Positions 51,010 through 63,065 of a stretch of DNA of 64,000 bases are shown here, in pieces. The notes under the pieces were generated by a model. The model ran no database searches and was not told the origin of the DNA. It saw only the letters and a list, made by a program, of their open reading frames with translations. This DNA comes from Caldilineaceae bacterium bin34. GTDB lineage: Bacteria; Chloroflexota; Anaerolineae; Caldilineales; Caldilineaceae. Location of the stretch: the NCBI GenBank assembly GCA_002238555.1, contig MPMO01000002.1, forward strand, positions 62,001 to 126,000, read 5' to 3'. The first letter of the stretch is position 1. Each line of letters opens with the position of its first letter. The position numbers and the translations under genes were made by a program.

Positions 51010-52023
51010 ATGGATGCGCCCATCAGGGTTGGCGTGATTGGAGTTGGCACCATGGGCAGCCACCACGCCGGCAACCTCGGCGGCAGCCAAGTGTCAGGCG
51101 CGGTCCTGAAAGCCGTGATGGACCTTGACGGCGATCTGCGAGCCGCGGTGGCCCACCGGCACGGGGTCGACCTGCAGTTCGACCAAACCCGGGCCATCAT
51201 CGGCAACCCCGACGTGGACGCCCTGCTCGTCGCGGCTCCAGACGGACTCCATGCCGAGCTGGCCATCGAATGCCTGGAGGCCGGCAAGCCCGTGTTCCTC
51301 GAAAAGCCGCTGGCCACCACCGTGCCGGATGCCGAACGTGTCGTTGAACTGGAAACCGGGATCGGACACCGCATGATCCAGGTGGGCTTCATGCGGGAAT
51401 ACGACCGCGCCCACGTGGAAGTCAAGACGGAGGTGGACACCGGGGGACATGGCCGACGACTGCTCTTCCGCAACGTCCATCGCAATGCCCACTTTCCCAA
51501 TGCCCGCACCATCGAGGACATCGTCACCAACTCCATGGTGCATGACATCCATTCTGCGCGCTGGATGATGGAGGACGAGATTGTCGAGGTGTACGGCCAG
51601 GCCGTTCCGGATGCGTGCCCGGATCCGGGCACGGCGCGCCTGTGCGTGATTCAGGTACGGTTCCGCAACGGGGCGCTCGGCCTGCTCGAGTTCAATACCA
51701 AGGCCGGCTACGGCTATGAAGTCGATGTCGAGATCAGTTGCCAGGACGGCGTGGTCGCCAGCCACACCGTGGGCACTCCCGTCGTCCGTAGCCGGGAAAC
51801 CCTCGGACAGGCGATTGCCCCGGAGTACACCGGTCGGTTCGGCGCGGCCTACCGGGACGAATTGGTTGCCTGGGCGGCGAGCCTGGAAGCGGAGAAACCG
51901 ACGGGGCCATCCGCCTGGGACGGGTACATGGCGATGGTAGTGGTCGAAGCCTGCATTGAATCGGTCAGAACCGGCCAGCCGGTTTCGATCCCCGAGTACG
52001 AGAAACCGTCTCTCTACTGCTAA
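51010..52023 (+). CDS. Gfo/Idh/MocA oxidoreductase, inositol 2-dehydrogenase-like
   Basis: 337 residues. The Rossmann motif VGVIGVGTMGSHHAGNL, the catalytic EKPLATTV with intact Lys, and the IVHD-like MVHDIHSARWMM are all present. This set is common in myo-inositol and other polyol dehydrogenases. The next gene (an MDR dehydrogenase) begins 45 bp downstream. A degraded copy of its last 60 bases is repeated at about 55842. Confidence 0.9.
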   Translation: MDAPIRVGVIGVGTMGSHHAGNLGGSQVSGAVLKAVMDLDGDLRAAVAHRHGVDLQFDQTRAIIGNPDVDALLVAAPDGLHAELAIECLEAGKPVFLEKPLATTVPDAERVVELETGIGHRMIQVGFMREYDRAHVEVKTEVDTGGHGRRLLFRNVHRNAHFPNARTIEDIVTNSMVHDIHSARWMMEDEIVEVYGQAVPDACPDPGTARLCVIQVRFRNGALGLLEFNTKAGYGYEVDVEISCQDGVVASHTVGTPVVRSRETLGQAIAPEYTGRFGAAYRDELVAWAASLEAEKPTGPSAWDGYMAMVVVEACIESVRTGQPVSIPEYEKPSLYC

Positions 52024-52068
52024 CCGGCAGGGAAGGGAGCACGCCGTGACAACGGCGGGAGGCCCACA

Positions 52069-53076
52069 ATGAGAGCCAAAGCCGTCGTCTTCCCCGAGGC
52101 CAACACCGTGGAGGTTCGGGAGGTGGACTGCCCCGAGCCCGGCCCCCGCGACGTGGTGGTCGACGTGACCCACTCCTGGATCAGCAATGGCACCGAAGGC
52201 TCCTACCTGAGAGGCGAACGCATCGCCGGGGACACGGCCTGGCGGCCCGGCTCACCGAGCCCCTTCCCCGTGGTGGCCGGCTACCAGAAAGTTGGTGTCG
52301 TGCGGAAGTTTGGCAGCCATGTGACAGACTTGGCACCAGGCGAAACCGTCTTTGCCGCCAGTGGCAAGGTCCATGGAATGTTCCATCCCTCCGGAGGACA
52401 GTTGTCCCCGTCGGTCACCCCCCGGGAAGGTGTCTGGAAGCTTCCTCCGCAACCGGAGCCGCTGGCCTATGCAGGCATGGTCCTGACCCAGGTCGGCTAC
52501 AACTGCGGGAGCCGCGCCCCGGTCGCGCCCGGCGAGGCGGCCGTGGTTCTGGGCGACGGCATGGTCGGACTGTGGGCCGCACAGACGCTGGCCCTGCGCG
52601 GGGCGCGCATCCTGTTGCTGGGCCGTCATGCAGATCGCCTGCGGCAGTTTCCGGACACCGGCGTGCACCGCAGTTGCAACGAGAGGGACGGCGACTGGCA
52701 AGAGGTCCTGACCGGCTTTCTGCCCGACGGCGTAGATGTGCTGATCGACACCGTGGGTTCAATCAAACACATTCAGAAGATTGTGCCCCGCATGAACCGC
52801 GGCGGCCGGATCGTCTCCGCCGGCTTCCACGGCACGGACGACCTCCTTTCGCTTCAGGACCTCCGGAACCAGGAACTGTCCCTGCACTCCGTCTCCGGAT
52901 GGACCCGACCGCGCATGGACCGGACACGGCACCTGATTGCCACGGGCCAGTTGCAAACCCTGCCGCTTATCACCCATCACTTCCCCGTAGACCGGGCCGC
53001 GGAGGCCTGGCACCTTATTCAGACCAAAACCGAACCGGTACTCGGCGTCATCTTAGACTGGACCGGACCCGGTTGA
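52069..53076 (+). CDS. MDR-family (zinc-type alcohol dehydrogenase-like) oxidoreductase
   Basis: 335 residues. The cofactor-binding motif is VLGDGMVGLWAAQTLALRGA, and the protein has the GroES-like N-terminal fold (PGPRDVVVDVTHSWISNGTE). Catalytic zinc ligands of classical alcohol dehydrogenases are not obvious; it belongs to the sugar/polyol group with a modified site. It follows the Gfo/Idh/MocA gene and precedes a fragment of the enolase-superfamily gene. This suggests an original order Gfo, MDR, enolase, for oxidation and dehydration of one sugar acid. Confidence 0.87.
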   Translation: MRAKAVVFPEANTVEVREVDCPEPGPRDVVVDVTHSWISNGTEGSYLRGERIAGDTAWRPGSPSPFPVVAGYQKVGVVRKFGSHVTDLAPGETVFAASGKVHGMFHPSGGQLSPSVTPREGVWKLPPQPEPLAYAGMVLTQVGYNCGSRAPVAPGEAAVVLGDGMVGLWAAQTLALRGARILLLGRHADRLRQFPDTGVHRSCNERDGDWQEVLTGFLPDGVDVLIDTVGSIKHIQKIVPRMNRGGRIVSAGFHGTDDLLSLQDLRNQELSLHSVSGWTRPRMDRTRHLIATGQLQTLPLITHHFPVDRAAEAWHLIQTKTEPVLGVILDWTGPG

Positions 53077-53519
53077 GGACAGGCTGGCAACCCAGAGCCA
53101 TTGCCACAGAACGCGAGAGCATGAGAAATGTACCGACCATCACGGCAGGCCAGCTGTCCAGCAAAAGGATTGGAAGTCAAGCTTCACAGGACCTGGTCGT
53201 AGGTTTCGGCTGCCACGGGACTTGGGCCACAGAACCCGGGATTGACAGCTTGGCCTGAGACGGAGCCAGTGGTGCAGCCGGTTCCGATATGCCTGAACTG
53301 AATCCCGTGGGGAACAGTTCTTCCAAGAGTTGCACCGGGCAGAAGGGCGAGTCTATCCTCACGTCTAAGCCAAGTAGGGCACGCTGAAACCGAATTTGCA
53401 GGCGTGGCAAGTCGATCCGGCACAGGTGCGCCGCCTGTGCGACTGGAACTGGATCCGGGAAGCCCTGACGGCCCTGCGGACACTCAAGCAGACAGGATTG
53501 ATATTGGGAGAGCGGAACC
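53077..53519. other. 443-bp junction with gene fragments
   Basis: It starts with the 5' fragment of the enolase-superfamily gene (listed separately), then about 200 bp with no match. Last comes a frame from 53396 reading QAWQVDPAQVRRLCDWNWIR, which I cannot assign, up to the DUF262 ribosome site. Confidence 0.5.
53121..53176 (+). pseudogene. 5' fragment of an enolase-superfamily gene
   Basis: The frame from the ATG at 53121 reads MRNVPTITAGQLSSKRI and then loses similarity. It matches the first 15 residues of the intact gene at 59264 (MRDAPTITAVQLSRYRI), and the preceding GCCATTGCCACAGAA also resembles that gene's upstream region. So the original enolase start still marks the place where the DUF262 block was inserted. 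Confidence 0.75.
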
Positions 53520-55268
53520 ATGGCATTTCAAACACCGATCACGATCAAAGAGGCGATCGACCACATTCACAACAACCGTTACCTGCTCCCAGCCATTCAA
53601 CGAGAGTTCGTGTGGCGACCGCATCAGATCGAGCGGCTCTTCGACAGCCTCATGCGCGGCTATCCAATCGGATCCTTCCTGTTCTGGCGAGTTGATCCCG
53701 AAACTGCCAAGAATTACAGCTTCTACCAGTTCATCACGAACTACGATCAACGGAAGCCCCACAATCCCGTCCACGGGGCGCCTTCCACCGTGCCTGGCTT
53801 GAAGGCGGTACTGGACGGACAACAACGCCTCACGGCACTGAATGTCGGGCTTCACGGCAGTGGCAGATGGAAACGTCCCCGCCTGTGGTGGAACAATCCA
53901 AGTGCCTTCCCGGAACGACGGCTCTATCTCAATCTCCTCGCGCCCCGGATGGAGAACGAAGAGGAACTCTCGTACAAGTTCAGCTTTCTCCCGGAGAAGG
54001 AGGCCCAAGACCGGAACCGCCGGAACGCCCACGAACACTGGTACCGCGCGGGAGACATCCTCAATGTTGAGGATGCTGCGGACCTGATCGACGTTGTCCA
54101 TGACCTACAACTCGCCGCTATCCGCGAACCTCAGAAGATGCTCAACCGGCTTCACCAAGTCGTGCACAACGACGGCATCGTCTCGGCTTACGAAGAGCCG
54201 AACCAGGATCCGGAACGGGTGCTCAACATCTTCGTTCGTACCAACAGCGGTGGTACGCCGCTCTCCTACTCGGACATGCTCCTCAGCATGGCGGTGGCCC
54301 AATGGGATAAGGTCGACGCGCGGAAGGAGATCCACTCTCTCGTTGACGAGATCAACAACATTAGCAGAGGCTTCTCGTTCAACCACGACTTTGTGCTCAA
54401 GGCCTGCCTGATGCTCGGCGATAGCAACAGCGTCCAATTCAAGGTCGAGAACTTCAGAAAATCGAAGATTGGATCCCTGCAGGATCAATGGGATCGCATC
54501 AGAAGCACGATCACGGAAACGGTGGAACTCGCGTCCTCGTTCGGATACTCTGGACAGAGCCTGACATCGGCAAACGCCCTGTTGCCAATCGCCTACTTTC
54601 TCTACCACTGTCAGCCGGCGTTGGATACCAAGGACCGTAAGGCTATTCGTGACTGGTTGATTCGCTCGCTGCTGAAGCGCGGGATCTGGAGTAGCAGCGT
54701 CGATAACCTACTGGTGGCGATCCGCAGAGCGATCCGGGAGAGTTCCTGCCACGACGGCTTCCCGGCTCGCGCGATCGAGAAAGCGATGCCGTCCGGCAAA
54801 AGCCTGACCTTCGATGACGAGGAGCTCCAGGACTTGGCCGACGCCGAGTACGGTGGAAGGGCCTACGGCCTCCTGTTCCTTCTGTACGATTTCGTCGACG
54901 TAACCACGAACCACTTCCACATCGATCATGTCTTTCCGCGCGCGCTGATGACCCCAGCGCGCTTGAAGCGGGATGGCATCAGCGAGGAAAAGATCCCCGA
55001 ATATCTCGCTCGGGTGAACCGCCTAGCCAACCTCCAGCTCCTCGAGGGCTCGACAAATACAAGCAAGGGTGCCAAGCTACCTGCCGACTGGCTAAGCGCA
55101 CGGTACCCCGACGACGAAGAACGACGGCATCATTGCCACCTACATGATCTGGGTGAGGTTCCGACCGAAATCGAGGGGTTCTTGGACTTCTACGAGGCGC
55201 GCCGAAACCGCATCCTGGAGAAGTTGCGCCACCTACTCGCGTCCGACAGCACGGGAACCCCGGACTAG
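53520..55268 (+). CDS. DUF262 plus HNH (GmrSD-like) protein, copy A
   Basis: 582 residues. The DUF262 part has YLLPAIQREFVWRPHQIERL, the nucleotide-handling motif DGQQRLTAL at about 99-107 and IFVRTNSGGTPLSYSDMLLS. The C-terminal HNH (DUF1524-like) nuclease has HFHIDHVFPRAL near residue 465 and NRLANLQLLEGSTNTSKGAK. GmrSD-type proteins are type IV restriction enzymes that cut modified phage DNA, and DUF262 also occurs in other defence enzymes. The start has GGGAGAGCGG just upstream. Its codon choice and GC are close to its neighbours. A small unknown gene follows within 72 bp and may belong to the same system. Confidence 0.87.
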   Translation: MAFQTPITIKEAIDHIHNNRYLLPAIQREFVWRPHQIERLFDSLMRGYPIGSFLFWRVDPETAKNYSFYQFITNYDQRKPHNPVHGAPSTVPGLKAVLDGQQRLTALNVGLHGSGRWKRPRLWWNNPSAFPERRLYLNLLAPRMENEEELSYKFSFLPEKEAQDRNRRNAHEHWYRAGDILNVEDAADLIDVVHDLQLAAIREPQKMLNRLHQVVHNDGIVSAYEEPNQDPERVLNIFVRTNSGGTPLSYSDMLLSMAVAQWDKVDARKEIHSLVDEINNISRGFSFNHDFVLKACLMLGDSNSVQFKVENFRKSKIGSLQDQWDRIRSTITETVELASSFGYSGQSLTSANALLPIAYFLYHCQPALDTKDRKAIRDWLIRSLLKRGIWSSSVDNLLVAIRRAIRESSCHDGFPARAIEKAMPSGKSLTFDDEELQDLADAEYGGRAYGLLFLLYDFVDVTTNHFHIDHVFPRALMTPARLKRDGISEEKIPEYLARVNRLANLQLLEGSTNTSKGAKLPADWLSARYPDDEERRHHCHLHDLGEVPTEIEGFLDFYEARRNRILEKLRHLLASDSTGTPD

Positions 55269-55340
55269 CACAGCGCGTCGCCGGAAGAGCAATCCCGGCA
55301 CAGCAAGGCTGGCGTGGCTCGTTTTCTCAGCGGAAGAACT

Positions 55341-55745
55341 ATGAGTATTTTCGAAAACCTGAAGATCACCGAGTTGATCGGGTGCGCGCCGTGGCGAGAA
55401 GCCGTCACCTATCGGAAAACGTGGCCCCACGAGTACGTCCTTAGCCGCAAGGACGGTCAAAGGGAGTTGATCGAACTGGTCTGTGCGCGCTTCCGTGCCG
55501 GAGAGGGCGTCGCTGGCACCTTCTTTGACATGTCGAACACCTACCTGTTCATTGGTGACCACAAGTACTGGCTCATGACCCACTGGACGGAGGTCGACCT
55601 CGACGACGGACAGGACTATGTGCTGAACCGAGCGCGACTCTATCGTGACCGGCGCGACTTCGTCATTCAGGGTGGGGATACAGGGAAGCGCGAGGACTAC
55701 CCCGCCAAACCGGCAAGGTCAATGCAACGCGCCGACCAATGCTGA
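55341..55745 (+). CDS. Small unknown protein downstream of DUF262 copy A
   Basis: 134 residues from the ATG at 55341, preceded by GGAAG. It starts MSIFENLKITELIGCAPWRE and has a compact, aromatic-rich middle (NTYLFIGDHKYWLMTHWTEV). I recognise no family. It contains one Asp/Arg-rich stretch near the end and no membrane segment. Its position, 72 bp after DUF262 copy A, and its absence from the second copy, suggest a partner gene unique to that copy, but this is inference. Confidence 0.6.
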   Translation: MSIFENLKITELIGCAPWREAVTYRKTWPHEYVLSRKDGQRELIELVCARFRAGEGVAGTFFDMSNTYLFIGDHKYWLMTHWTEVDLDDGQDYVLNRARLYRDRRDFVIQGGDTGKREDYPAKPARSMQRADQC

Positions 55746-55949
55746 GAGCAGCACGGCAATCGTGGCTCACAGTAGCCGGAACCGCAGAGAATCAGGGGTG
55801 CCAACGTCGTTCGAAGTCCTGAAACGCCAACGATGTGACAATTGGTCGGAACCGGTCAGCCAGGCGCGATACCCGAGTTGGAGAGACCATCCCTCTGCCG
55901 CTAGCCGACAGGAAACAGAGTACGTCGTGACCACGGCAGGAGGCCAGCG

Positions 55950-56941
55950 ATGAAAGCTACAGCCGTTGTCTTTCCCGCGGCCAATACCGTGGAAGTTCGG
56001 GAAGGGGACTGTCCCGAGCCCGGACCCCGCGATGTGGTGGTCGACGTGATCCACTCCGAGATCAGCAATGGTACCGAGGGCTCCTACCTGAGGGGCAAGC
56101 GCATCGCGGAGGACACAGCCTAGCGGCCCGGCTCACCGAACCACTTCCCCATGGTGGCCGGCTACCAGAAAGTGGGGATCGTGCGGGAGGTTGGCAGCCC
56201 TGTGGCGGACTTGGCATCGGATGAAACGGTCTTTGCAGCCAACGGCAAGGTCCACGGAATGTTCCATCCCTCCCGAGGACAGTTGTCTCCGGCAGTTATC
56301 CCCCGGGAAGGTGTCTGGAAGCTTCCACCGCAACCGGAACCGCTGGCCTTTGCTGGTATGGTTCTGCCCCAGGTTGGCTACAACTGCGAGAGCCGCGTCG
56401 CGGTCGCGCCCGGAGAGACAGCCGTGGTGCTGAGCGACGGTATGGTCGGACTGTGGGCCGCACAAATGCTGGCCCTGCGCGGGGCGCGCGTCCTGTTGCT
56501 GGGCCATCATGCAGATCGCCTGCGGCGGTTTCCGGACACCGGCGTGCACCGCCGTTGCAACGAGAGGGGCGGCAACTGGTAGGAGACCCTGGCCGGATTT
56601 CTGCCCGACGGCGTGGATATGCTGATCGACGGTGTGGGTTCGATCAAACATATGCAGGCGATTGTGTCCCGCATGAACCGCGGCAGCCGGATCGCCTCCG
56701 CCGGCTTCCACGGCACGGACGACCTCCTCTCACTTCAGGACCTCCGGAACCGGGAACTGTCCCTGCACTCCGTCTCCGGATGGACCGGACACGGCACCTG
56801 ATTGCCACAGGCTAGCTGCAAACCCTGCCGCTAATCACCCACCACTTCCCCGTGGCCCGGTCCACGGAGGCCTGGAACCTGATTCAGACCAAGTCCGAAC
56901 TGGTACTCGGCGTCATCCTGGACTGGACCGCATCGGATTGA
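55950..56941 (+). pseudogene. MDR dehydrogenase, dead copy of 52069-53076
   Basis: The reading frame from ATG 55950 follows the intact paralogue closely but has in-frame TAG stops at 56121 (Trp in the paralogue) and 56580 (Gln there), and a deletion of about 16 bases near 56783 that shifts the frame. Most other differences are substitutions. The copy is clearly not coding. It sits between the small unknown gene and the HU-like fragment. Confidence 0.93.
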
Positions 56942-57493
56942 GGACAGATCGGGGGTCAGGATGACACCCACCACTTGAACGTCGTTCATTGCAACAGTCC
57001 CAAGCATTCGAGACGACAGCGACTGCATCGAGCTCCGAGGGAGTCGGCACCTTCAAGGTGCAATACCATCAAGCCCGCACGGACCGCAACCCCAGGACCG
57101 GAGAACCAGCCAAGGTTCCTCCCTACGATGCACTGGGCGTCAAACCCTCGGGACACCTCCGCAGCCAAGTGAACCGAGGCTACGGCATGTCTGGAGGGAA
57201 CCATTGGAAGCCATAGCCTGCCTGTCGGGATCACCGACCGGGAACGCCGCCGTGTCTAGGACGCCACCGCCAGCGTACTGCCGGTGCTGCTGCGCCAAGC
57301 CATGTGGCACGCACGCGGATATGGACTACCCCGGCGGCCACTGCAATCGCCAATGCCCATTAGGCTCTTGGCTATCGCGTAGGTTTCACAAGCGGTTGTA
57401 AACCCTTGTTGGACCTTCCTTACGACACCGAGTGGAACCATGCCGATAATGTTGATGTACGACTTGCCTCTCAGCCTTTAGGAGAGCGGAACC
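56942..57493. other. 552-bp interval between the dead MDR gene and DUF262 copy B
   Basis: It holds an HU-like gene fragment (listed separately) and about 270 bp with no recognised gene; a T-rich, lower-GC stretch at 57360-57480 precedes the DUF262 ribosome site and may carry its promoter. Confidence 0.5.
57010..57216 (+). pseudogene. HU/IHF-like DNA-binding protein, C-terminal fragment
   Basis: In frame with 56989, codons from about 57034 read GVGTFKVQYHQARTDRNPRT followed by GEPAKVPP and a K-P-S-G-H-L stretch. This is the DNA-binding arm region of HU-family proteins (GxGxF, then RNPxTGE). The first half of HU, the dimerisation helices, is not visible. It looks like a fragment brought in with the DUF262 block or left from an older insertion. 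Confidence 0.65.
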
Positions 57494-60448
57494 ATGGCAT
57501 TTCAGACGCCGATCACAATCAAGGAGGCGATCGACCACATTCACAACAACCGTTTCCTGCTCCCAGCTTTTCGACGGGAGTTCATATGGCGACCGCATCA
57601 GATCGAGCGGCTCTTCGACAGCCTCATGCGCGGCTATCCGCTCGGATCCTTTCTGTTCTGGCGCGTCGATCCCGAAACTGCCAAGAATCACAGCTTCTGC
57701 CAGTTCATCACCAACTACAATCAACGGAAGCCCCACAATCCCATCCACGGGACACCTTCCACCGTACCCGGCTTGAAGGCGGTATTGGACGGTCAACAGC
57801 GTCTGACTGCTCTCAACATCGGGCTCAGAGGGAGGGGCCTGGCTCGCAAGTTGCCCCACCGGTGGTGGAACAACCCAAGAGTCTTCCCAGAACCACGGCT
57901 CTACCTCAATCTCCTCGCGCCCCGGATGGAGAACGAAGAGGGCCTCTCGTACAAGTTCAGCTTTCTCTCGGAGAAGGAGGCCCAAAATCGGAACTGCCGG
58001 AACGACCAGGAACACTGGTACCGCGTGGGAGACATCCTCGACATTGAGGTGGCTGAGGACCTGATCGACTTTGTCCATGACCTACAGCTCGCGGGTACAA
58101 AGGGGCCTCAGAAGATACTCTACCGGCTTCACCGCGTCGTGCATAACGACGGCATCATCTTGGCCTATGAAGAGGCGAACCAGGATCCGGAACGGGTGCT
58201 CAACATCTTCGTTCGTACCAACAGCGGTGGCACGCCGCTCTCCTACTCGGACATGCTCCTCAGCACGGCAGTAGTCCAATGGGACAAGGTCGACGCGCGG
58301 AAGGAGATCCACTCTCTGGTTGACGAGATCAACAACATTGGCAGAGGCTTCTCGTTCAACCGCGACTTCGTGCTCAAGGCCTGCCTGATGCTCGGCGACA
58401 GCAACAGCGTCCGATTCAAGGTCGAGAACTTCGGAAAGCCGCAGATCGGTACCCTGCAGGATCAATGGGATCGCATCAGAAGCACGATCACGGAAACAGT
58501 GGAACTCGCCTCCTCGTTTGGCTACTTCGGACAGAGCCTGGCATCGGCAGACGCTCTGTTGCCGATCGCCTACTTTCTCCACCACTGTCAGCCGGCGTTG
58601 GATACCAAGGACCGTAAGGCTATTCGTGACTGGTTGATTCGCTCGCTGCTGAAGCGCGGGATCTGGAGTAGCGGCGTCGATAACCTACTGGTGGTAATCC
58701 GCAGAGCGATCCGGGAGAGTTCCTGCCACGAAGGCTTCCCGGCTGGCGCGCTCGAGAAAGCGATGCCGTCCGGCAAAAGCCTGACCTTCGACGACGAGGA
58801 GCTCCAGGATTTGGCCGACGCCGAGTACGGTGGAAGGGCCTACAGCCTCCTGTTCCTTCTGTACGATTTCGTCGACGTAACCACGAACCACTTCCACATC
58901 GACCATGTCTTTCCGCGCGCGCTGATGACCCCGGCGCGCTTGAAGCAGGCTGGCATCAGCGAGGAACAGATCCCCGAATACCTCGCTCGGGTGAACCGCC
59001 TAGCCAACCTCCAGCTCCTCGAGGGATCGACAAACACGAGTAAGGGTGCCAAGCTACCTGCCGACTGGCTAAGCGCACGGTACCCCGACGAAGAAGAAAG
59101 GCGGCATCATTGCCACCTACACGATCTGGGTGAGGTTCCGACTGAAATCGAGGGATTCTTGGACTTCTACGAGGCGCGCCGAAGCCGTATCCTGGAGAAG
59201 TTGCGCCACCTACTCGCGTCCGACAGCCCGGGGACCCGAGGCCACCGCCACAGGAAGCAAGACATGCGAGATGCACCAACCATTACCGCAGTTCAACTGT
59301 CCAGATACCGTATCCCGTTCCCCAACGTCGGCCGGGATCACGGATTCGCCATGGGGCACTTCTACGAACCGGGCAGCACCGGCCACCGGATGGTGCTGGG
59401 AGTGCGCATCCATACCGACATCGGCGTCACCGGCGAGTACATGAGCATTGCGCCGGCCACGTTCGAGCAGGCCCTGATGTTTGTGGAGTACCTGATCGGC
59501 AAGCCGGCCCTGCAGCGCGAGCGGTTCTACGGCCAAGCCAAGTCGCTGTTGCGCAAGAACGACCGCATGGGCATGGGACCAATCGACATTGCCCTGTGGG
59601 ATCTGGCGGGCAAGTTCCACGACGCCCCCGTCTACCAGTTGTTGGGCGGCTACCGGGAAAGGCTGCCCTGCTACGCCAGCACCTACCATGCCGATCGCCA
59701 ACCCGACGGCCTGAGCAGCCCGGAGGCCTTTGCCGACTTCGCCGAGCAGTGCCTCGAACTGGGCTACAAGGGCTTCAAGATCCACCCCTGGGGTGATCCC
59801 GACATCGACCGCGAAATCGCAACGGTCAAGGCCGTGGGGCGTCGCGTGGGCGGCCGCATGGCTTTGATGCTGGATCCCTGCTGCGTCTACGACACGTTCG
59901 CCGATACACTCGCCGTGGGGCGGGCCTGCGACGAGGAAGGGTTCTACTGGTACGAGGATCCGATGCGGGACGGCGGGGTGTCCCTGCACGCCCACCGGAA
60001 GCTGCGGACCATGATCAAGACACCCCTGTTGCAGGGCGAACACATCCATCTGGTGGAGGCCCACGCCGACATGGCGGCCGCCGACGCCACGGACTTCTGG
60101 CGGGCCGACCCGGAATACGACGGCGGCATCACCGGAGTCATGAAGATCGCCCACGCTGCGGAAGGCTACGGCATGGACGTGGAACTGCACATTGCGGGAC
60201 CGGCACAGCGGCACTGCATGGCGGCCATGCGCAACTCCAACTTCTACGAAATGGGGTTGGTGCACCCCAAGCTGACCAACATTGCCTGTCCGCCGGTCTA
60301 TGCCTGCAACTACGAGGACGAACTCGAGACCATCGATGCCGACGGCTGCGTCCCGGTGCCGCAGGGACCGGGACTCGGTGTGACCTACGATTGGACCGGG
60401 GTCCAGCAGTGGCTGGTGCACGAGGAACTGATCGACACCGCAGCCTGA
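57494..60448 (+). CDS. DUF262-HNH protein, copy B, without its own stop and in frame with the enolase-superfamily gene
   Basis: 984 codons without a stop. Codons 1 to about 580 are the paralogue of the gene at 53520, with DGQQRLTAL and HFHIDHVFPRAL intact, but the family motif PAIQREFVW is changed to PAFRREFIW. In copy A a TAG follows the last shared codons; here the block is joined at about 59232 to the upstream region of the enolase gene (residues LASDSPGTRGHRHRKQD), in frame. Ribosomes finishing DUF262 would run on into the enolase and make a fused protein of about 108 kDa. A separate start for the enolase at 59264 also exists (next entry). Confidence 0.8.
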   Translation: MAFQTPITIKEAIDHIHNNRFLLPAFRREFIWRPHQIERLFDSLMRGYPLGSFLFWRVDPETAKNHSFCQFITNYNQRKPHNPIHGTPSTVPGLKAVLDGQQRLTALNIGLRGRGLARKLPHRWWNNPRVFPEPRLYLNLLAPRMENEEGLSYKFSFLSEKEAQNRNCRNDQEHWYRVGDILDIEVAEDLIDFVHDLQLAGTKGPQKILYRLHRVVHNDGIILAYEEANQDPERVLNIFVRTNSGGTPLSYSDMLLSTAVVQWDKVDARKEIHSLVDEINNIGRGFSFNRDFVLKACLMLGDSNSVRFKVENFGKPQIGTLQDQWDRIRSTITETVELASSFGYFGQSLASADALLPIAYFLHHCQPALDTKDRKAIRDWLIRSLLKRGIWSSGVDNLLVVIRRAIRESSCHEGFPAGALEKAMPSGKSLTFDDEELQDLADAEYGGRAYSLLFLLYDFVDVTTNHFHIDHVFPRALMTPARLKQAGISEEQIPEYLARVNRLANLQLLEGSTNTSKGAKLPADWLSARYPDEEERRHHCHLHDLGEVPTEIEGFLDFYEARRSRILEKLRHLLASDSPGTRGHRHRKQDMRDAPTITAVQLSRYRIPFPNVGRDHGFAMGHFYEPGSTGHRMVLGVRIHTDIGVTGEYMSIAPATFEQALMFVEYLIGKPALQRERFYGQAKSLLRKNDRMGMGPIDIALWDLAGKFHDAPVYQLLGGYRERLPCYASTYHADRQPDGLSSPEAFADFAEQCLELGYKGFKIHPWGDPDIDREIATVKAVGRRVGGRMALMLDPCCVYDTFADTLAVGRACDEEGFYWYEDPMRDGGVSLHAHRKLRTMIKTPLLQGEHIHLVEAHADMAAADATDFWRADPEYDGGITGVMKIAHAAEGYGMDVELHIAGPAQRHCMAAMRNSNFYEMGLVHPKLTNIACPPVYACNYEDELETIDADGCVPVPQGPGLGVTYDWTGVQQWLVHEELIDTAA
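59264..60448 (+). CDS. Enolase-superfamily (mandelate racemase/muconate lactonizing-type) sugar-acid dehydratase
   Basis: 394 residues from the ATG at 59264, which has AGGAAG seven bases upstream. Barrel motifs: GYKGFKIHPWGDPDID with a KxH-type acid/base pair, metal ligands in MLDPCCVYD (Asp), YWYEDPMRD (Glu) and LLQGEH (Glu), and a late VELHIAGPAQRHCM with the His. The capping domain is at the N-terminus. This resembles sugar-acid dehydratases, such as those acting on galactonate or related acids, but the substrate is not fixed by these residues. It was probably co-transcribed with the Gfo and MDR genes before the insertion. Confidence 0.88.
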   Translation: MRDAPTITAVQLSRYRIPFPNVGRDHGFAMGHFYEPGSTGHRMVLGVRIHTDIGVTGEYMSIAPATFEQALMFVEYLIGKPALQRERFYGQAKSLLRKNDRMGMGPIDIALWDLAGKFHDAPVYQLLGGYRERLPCYASTYHADRQPDGLSSPEAFADFAEQCLELGYKGFKIHPWGDPDIDREIATVKAVGRRVGGRMALMLDPCCVYDTFADTLAVGRACDEEGFYWYEDPMRDGGVSLHAHRKLRTMIKTPLLQGEHIHLVEAHADMAAADATDFWRADPEYDGGITGVMKIAHAAEGYGMDVELHIAGPAQRHCMAAMRNSNFYEMGLVHPKLTNIACPPVYACNYEDELETIDADGCVPVPQGPGLGVTYDWTGVQQWLVHEELIDTAA

Positions 60449-60823
60449 GTCCAATCGTTCCGCGATGGGACAGCCAGGACGAACCGCCTAGTAGTGCAAC
60501 GAAGCTTTGGAATGTTAGAAGCACAGTGTTGGGATGCCCTCATCATACACTTCGCTATGCCCTTCGCCGCCTACCATCGGTACTGTGAGCAGCTGTTCCA
60601 ACGCTATGAAGGTTCGTTGCACTACTGGCGGTGTATGCGGGGGCTCAGGGAATGACAGCGGGACAGGCCATAGTGCAGGTTTCGGTGACAAAAAGGGAGT
60701 CGGGACAACCTACGCCAACGAGATCGGCATAGTGCCCACCGGATAAGCGAAGCACCTCACGTAGAGCTTGATCGAGTAACATGATCGTTTGAGAAAGGAC
60801 TAGACCGACGAGGAACCGGAGTG
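60449..60823. other. 375-bp interval with the left MITE-like element
   Basis: It contains the left of two small inverted-repeat elements (60489-60626). The remainder, up to the DUF262 ribosome site, shows no gene. Confidence 0.5.
60489..60626 (+). mobile_element. Left copy of a ~135-bp inverted-repeat (MITE-like) element
   Basis: The ends TAGTGCAACGAA and TTCGTTGCACTA are exact inverted repeats of 12 bases. The interior has no reading frame. The element matches 62900-63030 in the same orientation over its whole length, apart from a gap of about ten bases. No transposase with matching ends is in the window. Confidence 0.85.
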
Positions 60824-62677
60824 ATGTACGACGGACAACCACCATTCACGACCAACCCCATTTTGCTGAAAAACCTCTTGGCACAAGTGGAACAAGGAGC
60901 ACTCCAGCTCCCAGACTTCCAGCGCGGTTGGGTATGGGATGATGTCCGGATCAAGGGGTTGATCGCGAGCATCTCGCAAGGCTTCCCCGTCGGTGCCGTG
61001 ATGACATTAGCCGCCAACGGACACGTGGCGTTTAGCCCGCGACCGATTGAGGGAGCAGAGGAGACGGCGAATGGGAAGGCACCGACAGAATATCTGTTGG
61101 ACGGGCAGCAACGGTTGACATCGTTGTACCAAGCACTGCTGCACCCGGGACCGGTGGCAACACAAACCGTCCATGGACGGTCGATCCAACAACGCTACTA
61201 CATTGACATGCGGCTAGCTCTGCGACCAGACGTAGAGCGTGAGGACGCGATCATCAGCGTGCCGAAGGACGGAAAGTTACGTGGTGCATTCGGGCGCGGA
61301 ATCCTGCTGGATCTCAGCACATCAGAGCGCGAACGAGAGCAGCACATGATGCCGACGGAGCGGCTGTGCAGCGAAGACATGTGGATCATCGAGTACATCC
61401 AGCATTGGGAGGGGCGCAACGACCATCCGGACGGGAGCGCGGCGGACCTCGTGATGCGGTTCAAGAAAGAAATCATGGGGCAATTCGCTGAGTACCAGCT
61501 CCCGGTGATCGGACTCGCCGCGGGAACTCCCCCTGAGGCCGTCTGTACAGTGTTCGAGAAGGTGAACACAGGTGGCGTGACCCTTACAACGTTTGAGTTG
61601 GTCACAGCAATGTTTGCCGGACACGGGTTCAAACTCCGTGAGGACTGGGAACCACGGCGCCGACAACTGCGCCAGCAATACGATGTGCTGCGGTGGGTCG
61701 GAGGAGTACACTTCTTGCAGACAGTGACGCTACTCGCGACTCAGGATGTGAAACGCAAGGCCTTGGCAGCAGGTGTCTCACCAGACCAGGTTCCAGGTGT
61801 CAAGTGCAAAAAACACGATGTGCTTCACCTCTCCGTCGACGAATATGAACAATGGGCAGACCTTGTCCAGATTGGCTACGAAGAGGCGGCTAAGTTCCTT
61901 CATCGGCAATTCATCTTCACTCGCAGCAACGTACCGTACAACACGCAGCTTGTACCACTCGCAGCGCTCTTTGTTGAGCTAAGCGATCGGGACTTGCATA
62001 GCGCGACCGCCAGAGCGCGATTGGAGCAGTGGTACTGGTGCGGTGTACTCGGCGAGGGTTATAGCACCAGTACAGAGACACAATATGCGCTGGATCTGGA
62101 GGAGGTTGCCAAATTTGTACGGACGGGAGAGGTACCGAGAATCGTCCGTGAAGCAACTTTCAATCCGAGGCGTCTAATCAGCATGACCACACGCAACAGC
62201 GCTGCATACAAAGGCATGTATGCCCTCCAAATGAAGCGCGGAGGCCGGGACTGGATGACCGGGGAAACGCTGACGCAGATGACTTTGGAAAACGAAAACG
62301 TAGACATCCACCATGTGTTTCCTATTAACTACTGCGAAAAGAGAGATCCTCCCATCCCGCCCCGGCTGTACCAATCCGTTGTCAACAAGGCTCCCATTGA
62401 TGCCAAGACAAATCGAAGCATCGGGGGGCGGGCACCAGCAAGCTACCTGCAGAACCTTCAAGAGCAAAGCGGGGTGCATTTGGAAGACATCCTAGCAAGC
62501 TACGGGATCAACATGGTAGCGCTGAAAGAAAATCAGTTTGGCGAGTTCTTTGTCCAAAGGGGACAGCAAATGTTGGCATGGATCGGGGAAGCCATGGGCA
62601 AGGAAGTGGACCTCAATGCCAAACCGCTGAGAGACGCTGTGAAAGGGTTGAAAGACCCCATCGGAGAGAGTTCCTGA
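60824..62677 (+). CDS. DUF262 plus HNH (GmrSD-like) protein, copy C (distant type)
   Basis: 617 residues. Motifs: LPDFQRGWVWDDVRIKGLIA, LLDGQQRLTSLYQALL at about 93, VFEKVNTGGVTLTTFELVTA, and the HNH DIHHVFPINYC near residue 495. It shares only these motifs with copies A and B. The start ATG 60824 has GAGGAACC upstream. Its base composition looks lower in GC than its neighbours, with codons ending in A or T more frequent, which suggests recent arrival. It lies between two copies of a MITE-like element (60489 and 62900), which may have carried it. Confidence 0.87.
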   Translation: MYDGQPPFTTNPILLKNLLAQVEQGALQLPDFQRGWVWDDVRIKGLIASISQGFPVGAVMTLAANGHVAFSPRPIEGAEETANGKAPTEYLLDGQQRLTSLYQALLHPGPVATQTVHGRSIQQRYYIDMRLALRPDVEREDAIISVPKDGKLRGAFGRGILLDLSTSEREREQHMMPTERLCSEDMWIIEYIQHWEGRNDHPDGSAADLVMRFKKEIMGQFAEYQLPVIGLAAGTPPEAVCTVFEKVNTGGVTLTTFELVTAMFAGHGFKLREDWEPRRRQLRQQYDVLRWVGGVHFLQTVTLLATQDVKRKALAAGVSPDQVPGVKCKKHDVLHLSVDEYEQWADLVQIGYEEAAKFLHRQFIFTRSNVPYNTQLVPLAALFVELSDRDLHSATARARLEQWYWCGVLGEGYSTSTETQYALDLEEVAKFVRTGEVPRIVREATFNPRRLISMTTRNSAAYKGMYALQMKRGGRDWMTGETLTQMTLENENVDIHHVFPINYCEKRDPPIPPRLYQSVVNKAPIDAKTNRSIGGRAPASYLQNLQEQSGVHLEDILASYGINMVALKENQFGEFFVQRGQQMLAWIGEAMGKEVDLNAKPLRDAVKGLKDPIGESS

Positions 62678-63065
62678 GTACCGGGGCAAGGTACTTGTCA
62701 GCGCGTCCGCTATGCTGGCACAGTCAAATATATACTAATCCAGTGTGATATTAACACTTTACACCGTCATCTGTCCGATGAGAGTCTCCTGTAATCCGCA
62801 GGACGGCGGTTGCCTTGGCGACCAACACTGGATCTAGCTGCCTCTGGAGCCATGGCCCGATGATTAACCAATGGTATCTCAGGCATACTGGATTGGTATT
62901 AGTCGTGTAACGAAGCTTTGAGCAGTGGGAATACAGTGTTGGGATTCCCTCATCGTACACTTTGCCATGTTCCTCGCCGCTGATACTGTGAGCGGCTATT
63001 CCAACGATATGAAGGTTCGTTGCACCACTAGGCAGACGGCATCAGCCGCCCGAAGGAGAATCCCC
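62678..63065. other. 388-bp interval with an AT-rich patch and the right MITE-like element
   Basis: An AT-rich stretch lies at about 62725-62765. The right MITE-like element is at 62900-63030. No gene is visible. Confidence 0.5.
62900..63030 (+). mobile_element. Right copy of the ~135-bp MITE-like element
   Basis: Same orientation as the left copy. The outer ends are slightly diverged (TAGTCGTGTAACGAA and TTCGTTGCACCACTA), and the middle ACAGTGTTGGGATTCCCTCA is almost identical to the left copy. No reading frame. Confidence 0.85.

What the first reader, a model, noticed from the sequence alone, without database searches (positions are those of the whole stretch)
60489..63030. DUF262 defence-type gene bracketed by two direct copies of a MITE-like element
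Two copies of a 131-138-bp element with 12-base terminal inverted repeats flank one complete low-GC DUF262-HNH gene and nothing else. This looks like a compact unit in which small non-autonomous elements move or capture a defence gene, with no transposase of its own in the window.
Basis: partly seen in the sequence, partly recalled or inferred. Interest (0 to 1): 0.7.

Follow-up and report, generated by a model that had tools for sequence, protein, structure and literature searches.

The report
MITE-bounded mobile unit carrying restriction gene
Two tiny transposon remnants bracket a probable anti-phage restriction gene in an uncultured bacterium, and comparison with three relatives suggests that the whole 2.5-kb package went in together at one 4-base site, so remnants without their own enzyme seem to have carried a defence gene into a new place.

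Summary
Two direct repeats (A 60492-60624, B 62903-63027; 78% identical) flank an intact GmrSD/DUF262-type gene (60821-62677). They are internally deleted derivatives of an IS701-family insertion sequence; a 1.4-kb relative with CTAG on both sides lies in a congener. The elements match 4 of 61 genomes searched, all one genus. In three of three congeners the flanking genes are adjacent, without elements or gene. The best empty site aligns gap-free to the window's flanks joined through one CTAG, so 2,536 bp sit in one 4-bp target. Just inside A lies an IS630-family fragment that stops at A's border and is not continued outside A, as expected if the block was built elsewhere and then moved. The unit is not 'one gene and nothing else': it also holds that fragment and a second MITE (62732-62899). 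It works like a TIME-COMP, a composite bounded by two MITEs and mobilised in trans, but with IS701-type ends and a restriction-type cargo. One locus only; transposition is inferred. New variant of a known kind.

The parts
60488..60491 (.). left outer CTAG, target-site copy
60492..60624 (+). MITE A, internally deleted IS701-family element, 133 bp
60625..60628 (.). inner CTGG next to A, read as a decayed relic of A's own target copy (inference)
60629..60718 (-). fragment of the start of an IS630-family transposase gene; stops at A's inner border and is not continued outside A
60821..62677 (+). intact GmrSD/DUF262-type gene, 618 aa, DGQQR at residues 94-98, HNH-like region from residue 495
62732..62899 (.). 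second MITE with IS630-type ends (ATACCAATCCAGTATG-like), multicopy in this genome
62899..62902 (.). inner TTAG next to B (its first base overlaps the end of the second MITE's match)
62903..63027 (+). MITE B, internally deleted IS701-family element, 125 bp
63028..63031 (.). right outer CTAG, target-site copy

Best explanation
A non-autonomous composite transposon. Two IS701-derived MITEs landed on either side of a GmrSD-type restriction gene somewhere else (A inside an IS630 copy, B at the edge of a second MITE). An IS701-family transposase acting in trans then used the outer end of A (left-type) and the outer end of B (right-type), which in direct orientation form the same left/right pair as one IS, and moved the 2,536-bp block into a CTAG-like target between an enolase-superfamily gene and a zinc alcohol dehydrogenase gene, duplicating 4 bp. 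Shown: relation to the IS, the outer CTAG pair, the gap-free empty site, absence of the block from this place in three congeners, IS630 sequence inside A but not outside it. Inferred: that it was one transposition event, that the transposase came in trans, that the gene product restricts foreign DNA.
For: IS701 partner: L022 (G003) carries both element ends about 1.4 kb apart with CTAG on both sides and a transposase that matches NF033540 with 312 bits against cut-off 150; A and B match its left end to about the start codon and its right end. The published IS701 family is given as 1,400-1,550 bp with 4-bp duplications (PMC2266710, passages). Empty site: in 3 of 3 congeners the two flanking genes follow each other directly; window flanks joined through one CTAG match G003 without gaps at 80 of 102 positions (right flank 39 of 51; best of 16 shifted registers 21 of 51). 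Nested evidence: IS630 homology runs up to A's inner border, and two near full-length IS630 copies find no continuation on A's outer side.
Against: One locus only; no second copy of the unit and no donor site found. G003 reads CCAA where the target should be (2 of 4 bases of CTAG), so the ancestral target is not directly seen. CTAG borders most of the better-conserved ends in the genus, so a CTAG pair would also be seen around independent insertions. G001 and G002 have a shorter spacer and do not resolve the junction. Attempts to see clean empty sites for two other MITE copies failed. No intact IS701 partner with exactly these ends was found in the window's own genome: its C31 copy is broken, and at least four other ends lie about 110-130 bases from a contig end.
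Confidence: 0.75

Rival explanations
1. Stepwise build-up: one MITE inserted at the CTAG in the spacer, and the gene with the second MITE came in later by homologous recombination between MITEs or by further insertion.
For: The end product would look the same. A and B belong to different sub-lineages (B is closest to L014, A to L008/L009). Nested repeats show the block was built in several steps somewhere.
Against: Recombination would have to act on arms of about 130 bp that are only 78% identical between A and B. Insertion of B into A's own target copy would leave A directly next to B, not IS630 sequence and a second MITE between them.
Confidence: 0.13
2. Old resident block, lost precisely in the relatives.
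For: No outgroup spacer was compared, so polarity rests on parsimony. In the regions compared the three relatives are 90-91% identical to each other, while the window is 82-92% identical to them; if they form a clade, one loss would be enough.
Against: Needs a precise removal leaving one target copy; G003 shows no footprint. The IS630 fragment that stops at A's border would still be unexplained.
Confidence: 0.07
3. Two unrelated MITE insertions that happen to flank an older gene.
For: The family has 6-8 matches per genome, and a chance pair this close is not very rare (2-19% in simulation).
Against: The gene is absent from this place in 3 of 3 congeners, and the spacer is gap-free in G003.
Confidence: 0.03

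Closest known systems
TIME-COMP (composite bounded by two Tn3-derived miniature elements)
   Same: Two MITEs in direct or inverted orientation bound unrelated genes, no transposase inside, target duplication at the outermost ends, mobilised in trans (PMC4133298 passages; PMC13367494 abstract, Introduction and overview section).
   Different: There the ends are Tn3-type with 5-6 bp duplications, mostly on plasmids, with resistance or other genes; here IS701-type ends, 4 bp, a 164-kb contig with metabolic genes, a restriction-type cargo. Mobility was shown there, not here.
MITE-flanked class 1 integrons in Acinetobacter
   Same: Two MITE copies around cargo, likened to a composite transposon (PMC6382973 passages).
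   Different: Other MITE family, identical copies, resistance cargo; here the copies are only 78% identical.
IS701 family insertion sequences
   Same: Source of the ends and of the likely transposase; 4-bp duplication as published for the family (PMC2266710 passages; two members with 4-9 bp in PMC8024623 passages).
   Different: A and B lack the transposase gene.
BrxU, GmrSD-family type IV restriction enzyme
   Same: Best structural match of the cargo model in the PDB (E 1.3e-12).
   Different: 15% identity, TM-score only about 0.4 with a large rmsd; by sequence alone E 0.66.

Membership tests
MITE of the IS701 family | ends match those of an IS701-family element | tested here: met
   1-3 mismatches in 14 to the L022 end at the four MITE ends; L022 transposase matches NF033540 above its cut-off
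MITE of the IS701 family | no transposase gene, short, internal deletion of the parent | tested here: met
   133 and 125 bp, parent left and right ends joined
MITE of the IS701 family | 4-bp target duplication | tested here: inconclusive
   outer pair CTAG/CTAG; single elements CTAG/CTGG and TTAG/CTAG; the one usable empty site reads CCAA
composite bounded by two MITEs (TIME-COMP-like) | whole block absent from the matching site in relatives, outer target duplication | tested here: met
   3 of 3 congeners lack it there; outer CTAG on both sides
composite bounded by two MITEs (TIME-COMP-like) | moves as a unit when the transposase is given in trans | not testable with these tools
   needs a mating-out or trap-plasmid assay
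TIME-COMP in the strict sense | Tn3-type inverted repeats | tested here: not met
   ends belong to an IS701-family element
GmrSD-type (type IV) restriction enzyme | GmrSD_N domain with DGQQR motif | tested here: met
   PF03235 93.8 bits, cut-off 33.2; motif invariant in 4 of 4 aligned proteins
GmrSD-type (type IV) restriction enzyme | C-terminal HNH nuclease domain | tested here: inconclusive
   no Pfam hit over cut-off, weak HNH_4 13.4 bits against 22; D495, H497, H498, N522, N531 invariant in 4 of 4; fold match to BrxU, weak to a Cas9 HNH domain (E 0.11)
GmrSD-type (type IV) restriction enzyme | cuts modified DNA, protects against phage | not testable with these tools
   wet assay needed

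The most novel reading that the evidence does not exclude
IS701-derived MITE pairs are a vehicle for defence genes in this genus: the elements carry no genes themselves, yet in trans they pick up and relocate single-gene restriction systems acquired from other phyla, which then collect beside one metabolic locus. The window would hold one example, and a 258-aa gene between two IS701 derivatives in a congener a second unit of the same build.
Probability: 0.2. Interest if true: 0.65.

Novelty: new variant of a known kind. Interest (0 to 1): 0.45.

Why it matters
Defence genes are known to be gained and lost quickly (recalled), but how single genes travel without a phage, plasmid or large island is often unclear. 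Here the vehicle is two pieces of about 130 bp; MITEs tend to be overlooked by annotation pipelines (PMC13367494, Introduction). If such composites are common outside resistance plasmids, many 'lone' defence genes may be their cargo, and a search for paired MITEs with clean empty sites would test this directly.

Tried and rejected
Second unit: G003:C13 (L082) has a 258-aa gene (no Pfam family at E 0.001) between a left-end IS701 piece and an internally deleted IS701 element, but no empty site was found; the match to G001 and G002 ends before the element. Kept as a lead only. Donor site: the sequences just inside A and B occur elsewhere in the four genomes of the genus only as repeats, with no second copy of the gene block. 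Control empty sites for two other MITE copies: one flank found nothing, the other ran into further repeats. Pattern census of ends with up to 2 mismatches: 78 matches in 4 genomes against 34 for the pattern read backwards (in G001 12 against 12), so many two-mismatch matches are probably noise. Promoter scan: 2 found, 1.6 expected; terminator scan: 0 found, 2.3 expected.

Full report
What was claimed and what is there. The two repeats are real: A 60492-60624 and B 62903-63027, direct orientation, 78.3% identical over 138 aligned bases. Between them lies a complete 618-aa gene, 60821-62677, with a GmrSD_N (DUF262) domain. DGQQR and the residues D495, H497, H498, N522 and N531 are invariant in 4 of 4 aligned proteins. 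An AlphaFold2 model from these four sequences (best of five models mean pLDDT 76, the others 53-65) has BrxU, a GmrSD-family type IV restriction enzyme, as best match in the PDB: three chains with E from 1.3e-12 to 1.8e-9, but TM-scores of only 0.37-0.46 and rmsd of about 15-17. PADLOC models of candidate defence proteins match mainly the N-terminal part (best PDC-M55C, E 6.5e-28). NCBIfam gave no family. 'Defence-type' is therefore reasonable, function untested.

What the repeats are. The 138-base query matches 4 of 61 genomes searched: the window's own and the three others of its genus, 7, 6, 7 and 8 matches; 0 of the 57 others at E 0.001. Many matches cover one end only. One locus, L022 in G003, has the left part of the repeat from 152 and the right part up to 1549, with CTAG outside both ends and a transposase gene between; it has a short masked stretch. 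That protein is IS701 family (NF033540, 312 bits, cut-off 150; Pfam DDE_5). A and B keep the left end up to about the transposase start codon and the right end with the last codons: they are internal deletions of this kind of IS. The IS701 family is described with 1,400-1,550 bp and 4-bp duplications (PMC2266710, passages read); L022 is about 1,393 bp between its CTAGs (read). Another study reports 4-9 bp for two members (PMC8024623, passages).

Empty site. The enolase-superfamily gene upstream and the zinc alcohol dehydrogenase downstream have close counterparts in G001, G002 and G003 (90-92% and 87% identity), and in all three the two matches lie 2 to 9 bases apart. None has either MITE or the gene there. 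G003 keeps the full spacer. Joining the window's flanks through one CTAG gives a sequence that aligns to G003 without a gap: 39 of 47 left, 2 of 4 at the target (G003 reads CCAA), 39 of 51 right; sliding the right flank by 1-8 bases either way gives at most 21 of 51. So 2,536 bp plus one extra CTAG sit in the spacer with no base lost. G001 and G002 have a shorter spacer and agree only in lacking the block. No outgroup spacer was compared.

Nested evidence. The 90 bases just inside A (60629-60718) match the start of an IS630-family transposase gene found in G003 and G001 (74-77%); the family rests on NF033545, where one of three pieces tested passes the cut-off (103.6 against 100; the others 98.9 and 51). 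In those copies the gene goes on; in the window the similarity stops at A's inner tetranucleotide, and two near full-length copies find nothing on the outer side of A. That is expected if A inserted into an IS630 copy in another place and the block from A to B then left with one half. On the other side, directly next to B, lies a 168-bp repeat (62732-62899). In this genome it has 7 further matches, 4 over its whole length and 3 partial; the three congeners gave none at E 0.001, although IS630 copies in G001 and G003 share its right end. The interior is thus a small mosaic.

Origin of the cargo. Within the genus the best is 53% in G003; G002 has only weaker partial matches, G001 none. Nucleotide similarity to the two alphaproteobacterial loci covers the gene only. 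This fits horizontal gain, but direction and route are open.

Mechanism. Most likely a composite moved in trans (0.75): outer A-left and B-right ends have 1 and 2 mismatches in 14 to the IS end, the inner ones 1 and 3. Weak points: one locus, no donor, target reads CCAA in G003, CTAG borders most well-conserved ends anyway, gain against loss rests on parsimony, no intact matching transposase found in the own genome although several ends lie close to contig ends.

Against the literature. Composites bounded by MITEs and moved in trans are known as TIME-COMPs (PMC4133298, passages; PMC13367494, abstract, Introduction, overview section) and from Acinetobacter integrons (PMC6382973, passages). The 2026 paper states that, to its authors' knowledge, no such structures bounded by non-Tn3 MITEs had been reported in Enterobacteriaceae. 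In the held open-licence library, 'IS701 family' with 'miniature inverted-repeat transposable' gave 0 papers, and 'defense system' with 'insertion sequence', 'composite transposon' and 'MITE' gave 7, of which I saw titles and abstract starts, none on this subject. Subscription papers are not covered. So: new variant of a known kind, new ends and new kind of cargo as far as these searches reach, mechanism familiar.

Noticed in passing
window 51959-59240: An alcohol dehydrogenase gene plus a HEC-05-type DUF262 gene are tandemly duplicated (86% and 91% nucleotide identity); in G001-G003 the dehydrogenase match is followed within 13-23 bases by the enolase gene, without a DUF262 gene between. With the unit described here, three DUF262 genes sit in one metabolic locus, two of them apparently by duplication.
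   Followed up: partly
window 57494-60448: The second HEC-05-type DUF262 gene reads in frame into the enolase-superfamily gene as one 984-aa open frame.
   Followed up: partly
window 53207-53488: IS630 transposase remnant (C-terminal part) shortly before the first HEC-05-type gene, after what looks like a copy of the enolase gene start.
   Followed up: no
L022 1541-1551: The stop codon TAG of the IS701-family transposase is supplied by the CTAG target copy outside the element.
   Followed up: no
L082 2571-4156: In congener G003 a 258-aa gene without Pfam family lies between two IS701-derived elements in direct orientation; possible second unit, no empty site found.
   Followed up: partly
window 60557-60655: MITE A keeps a short open frame that resembles the transposase's first and last codons fused and would run out of the element.
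   Followed up: no
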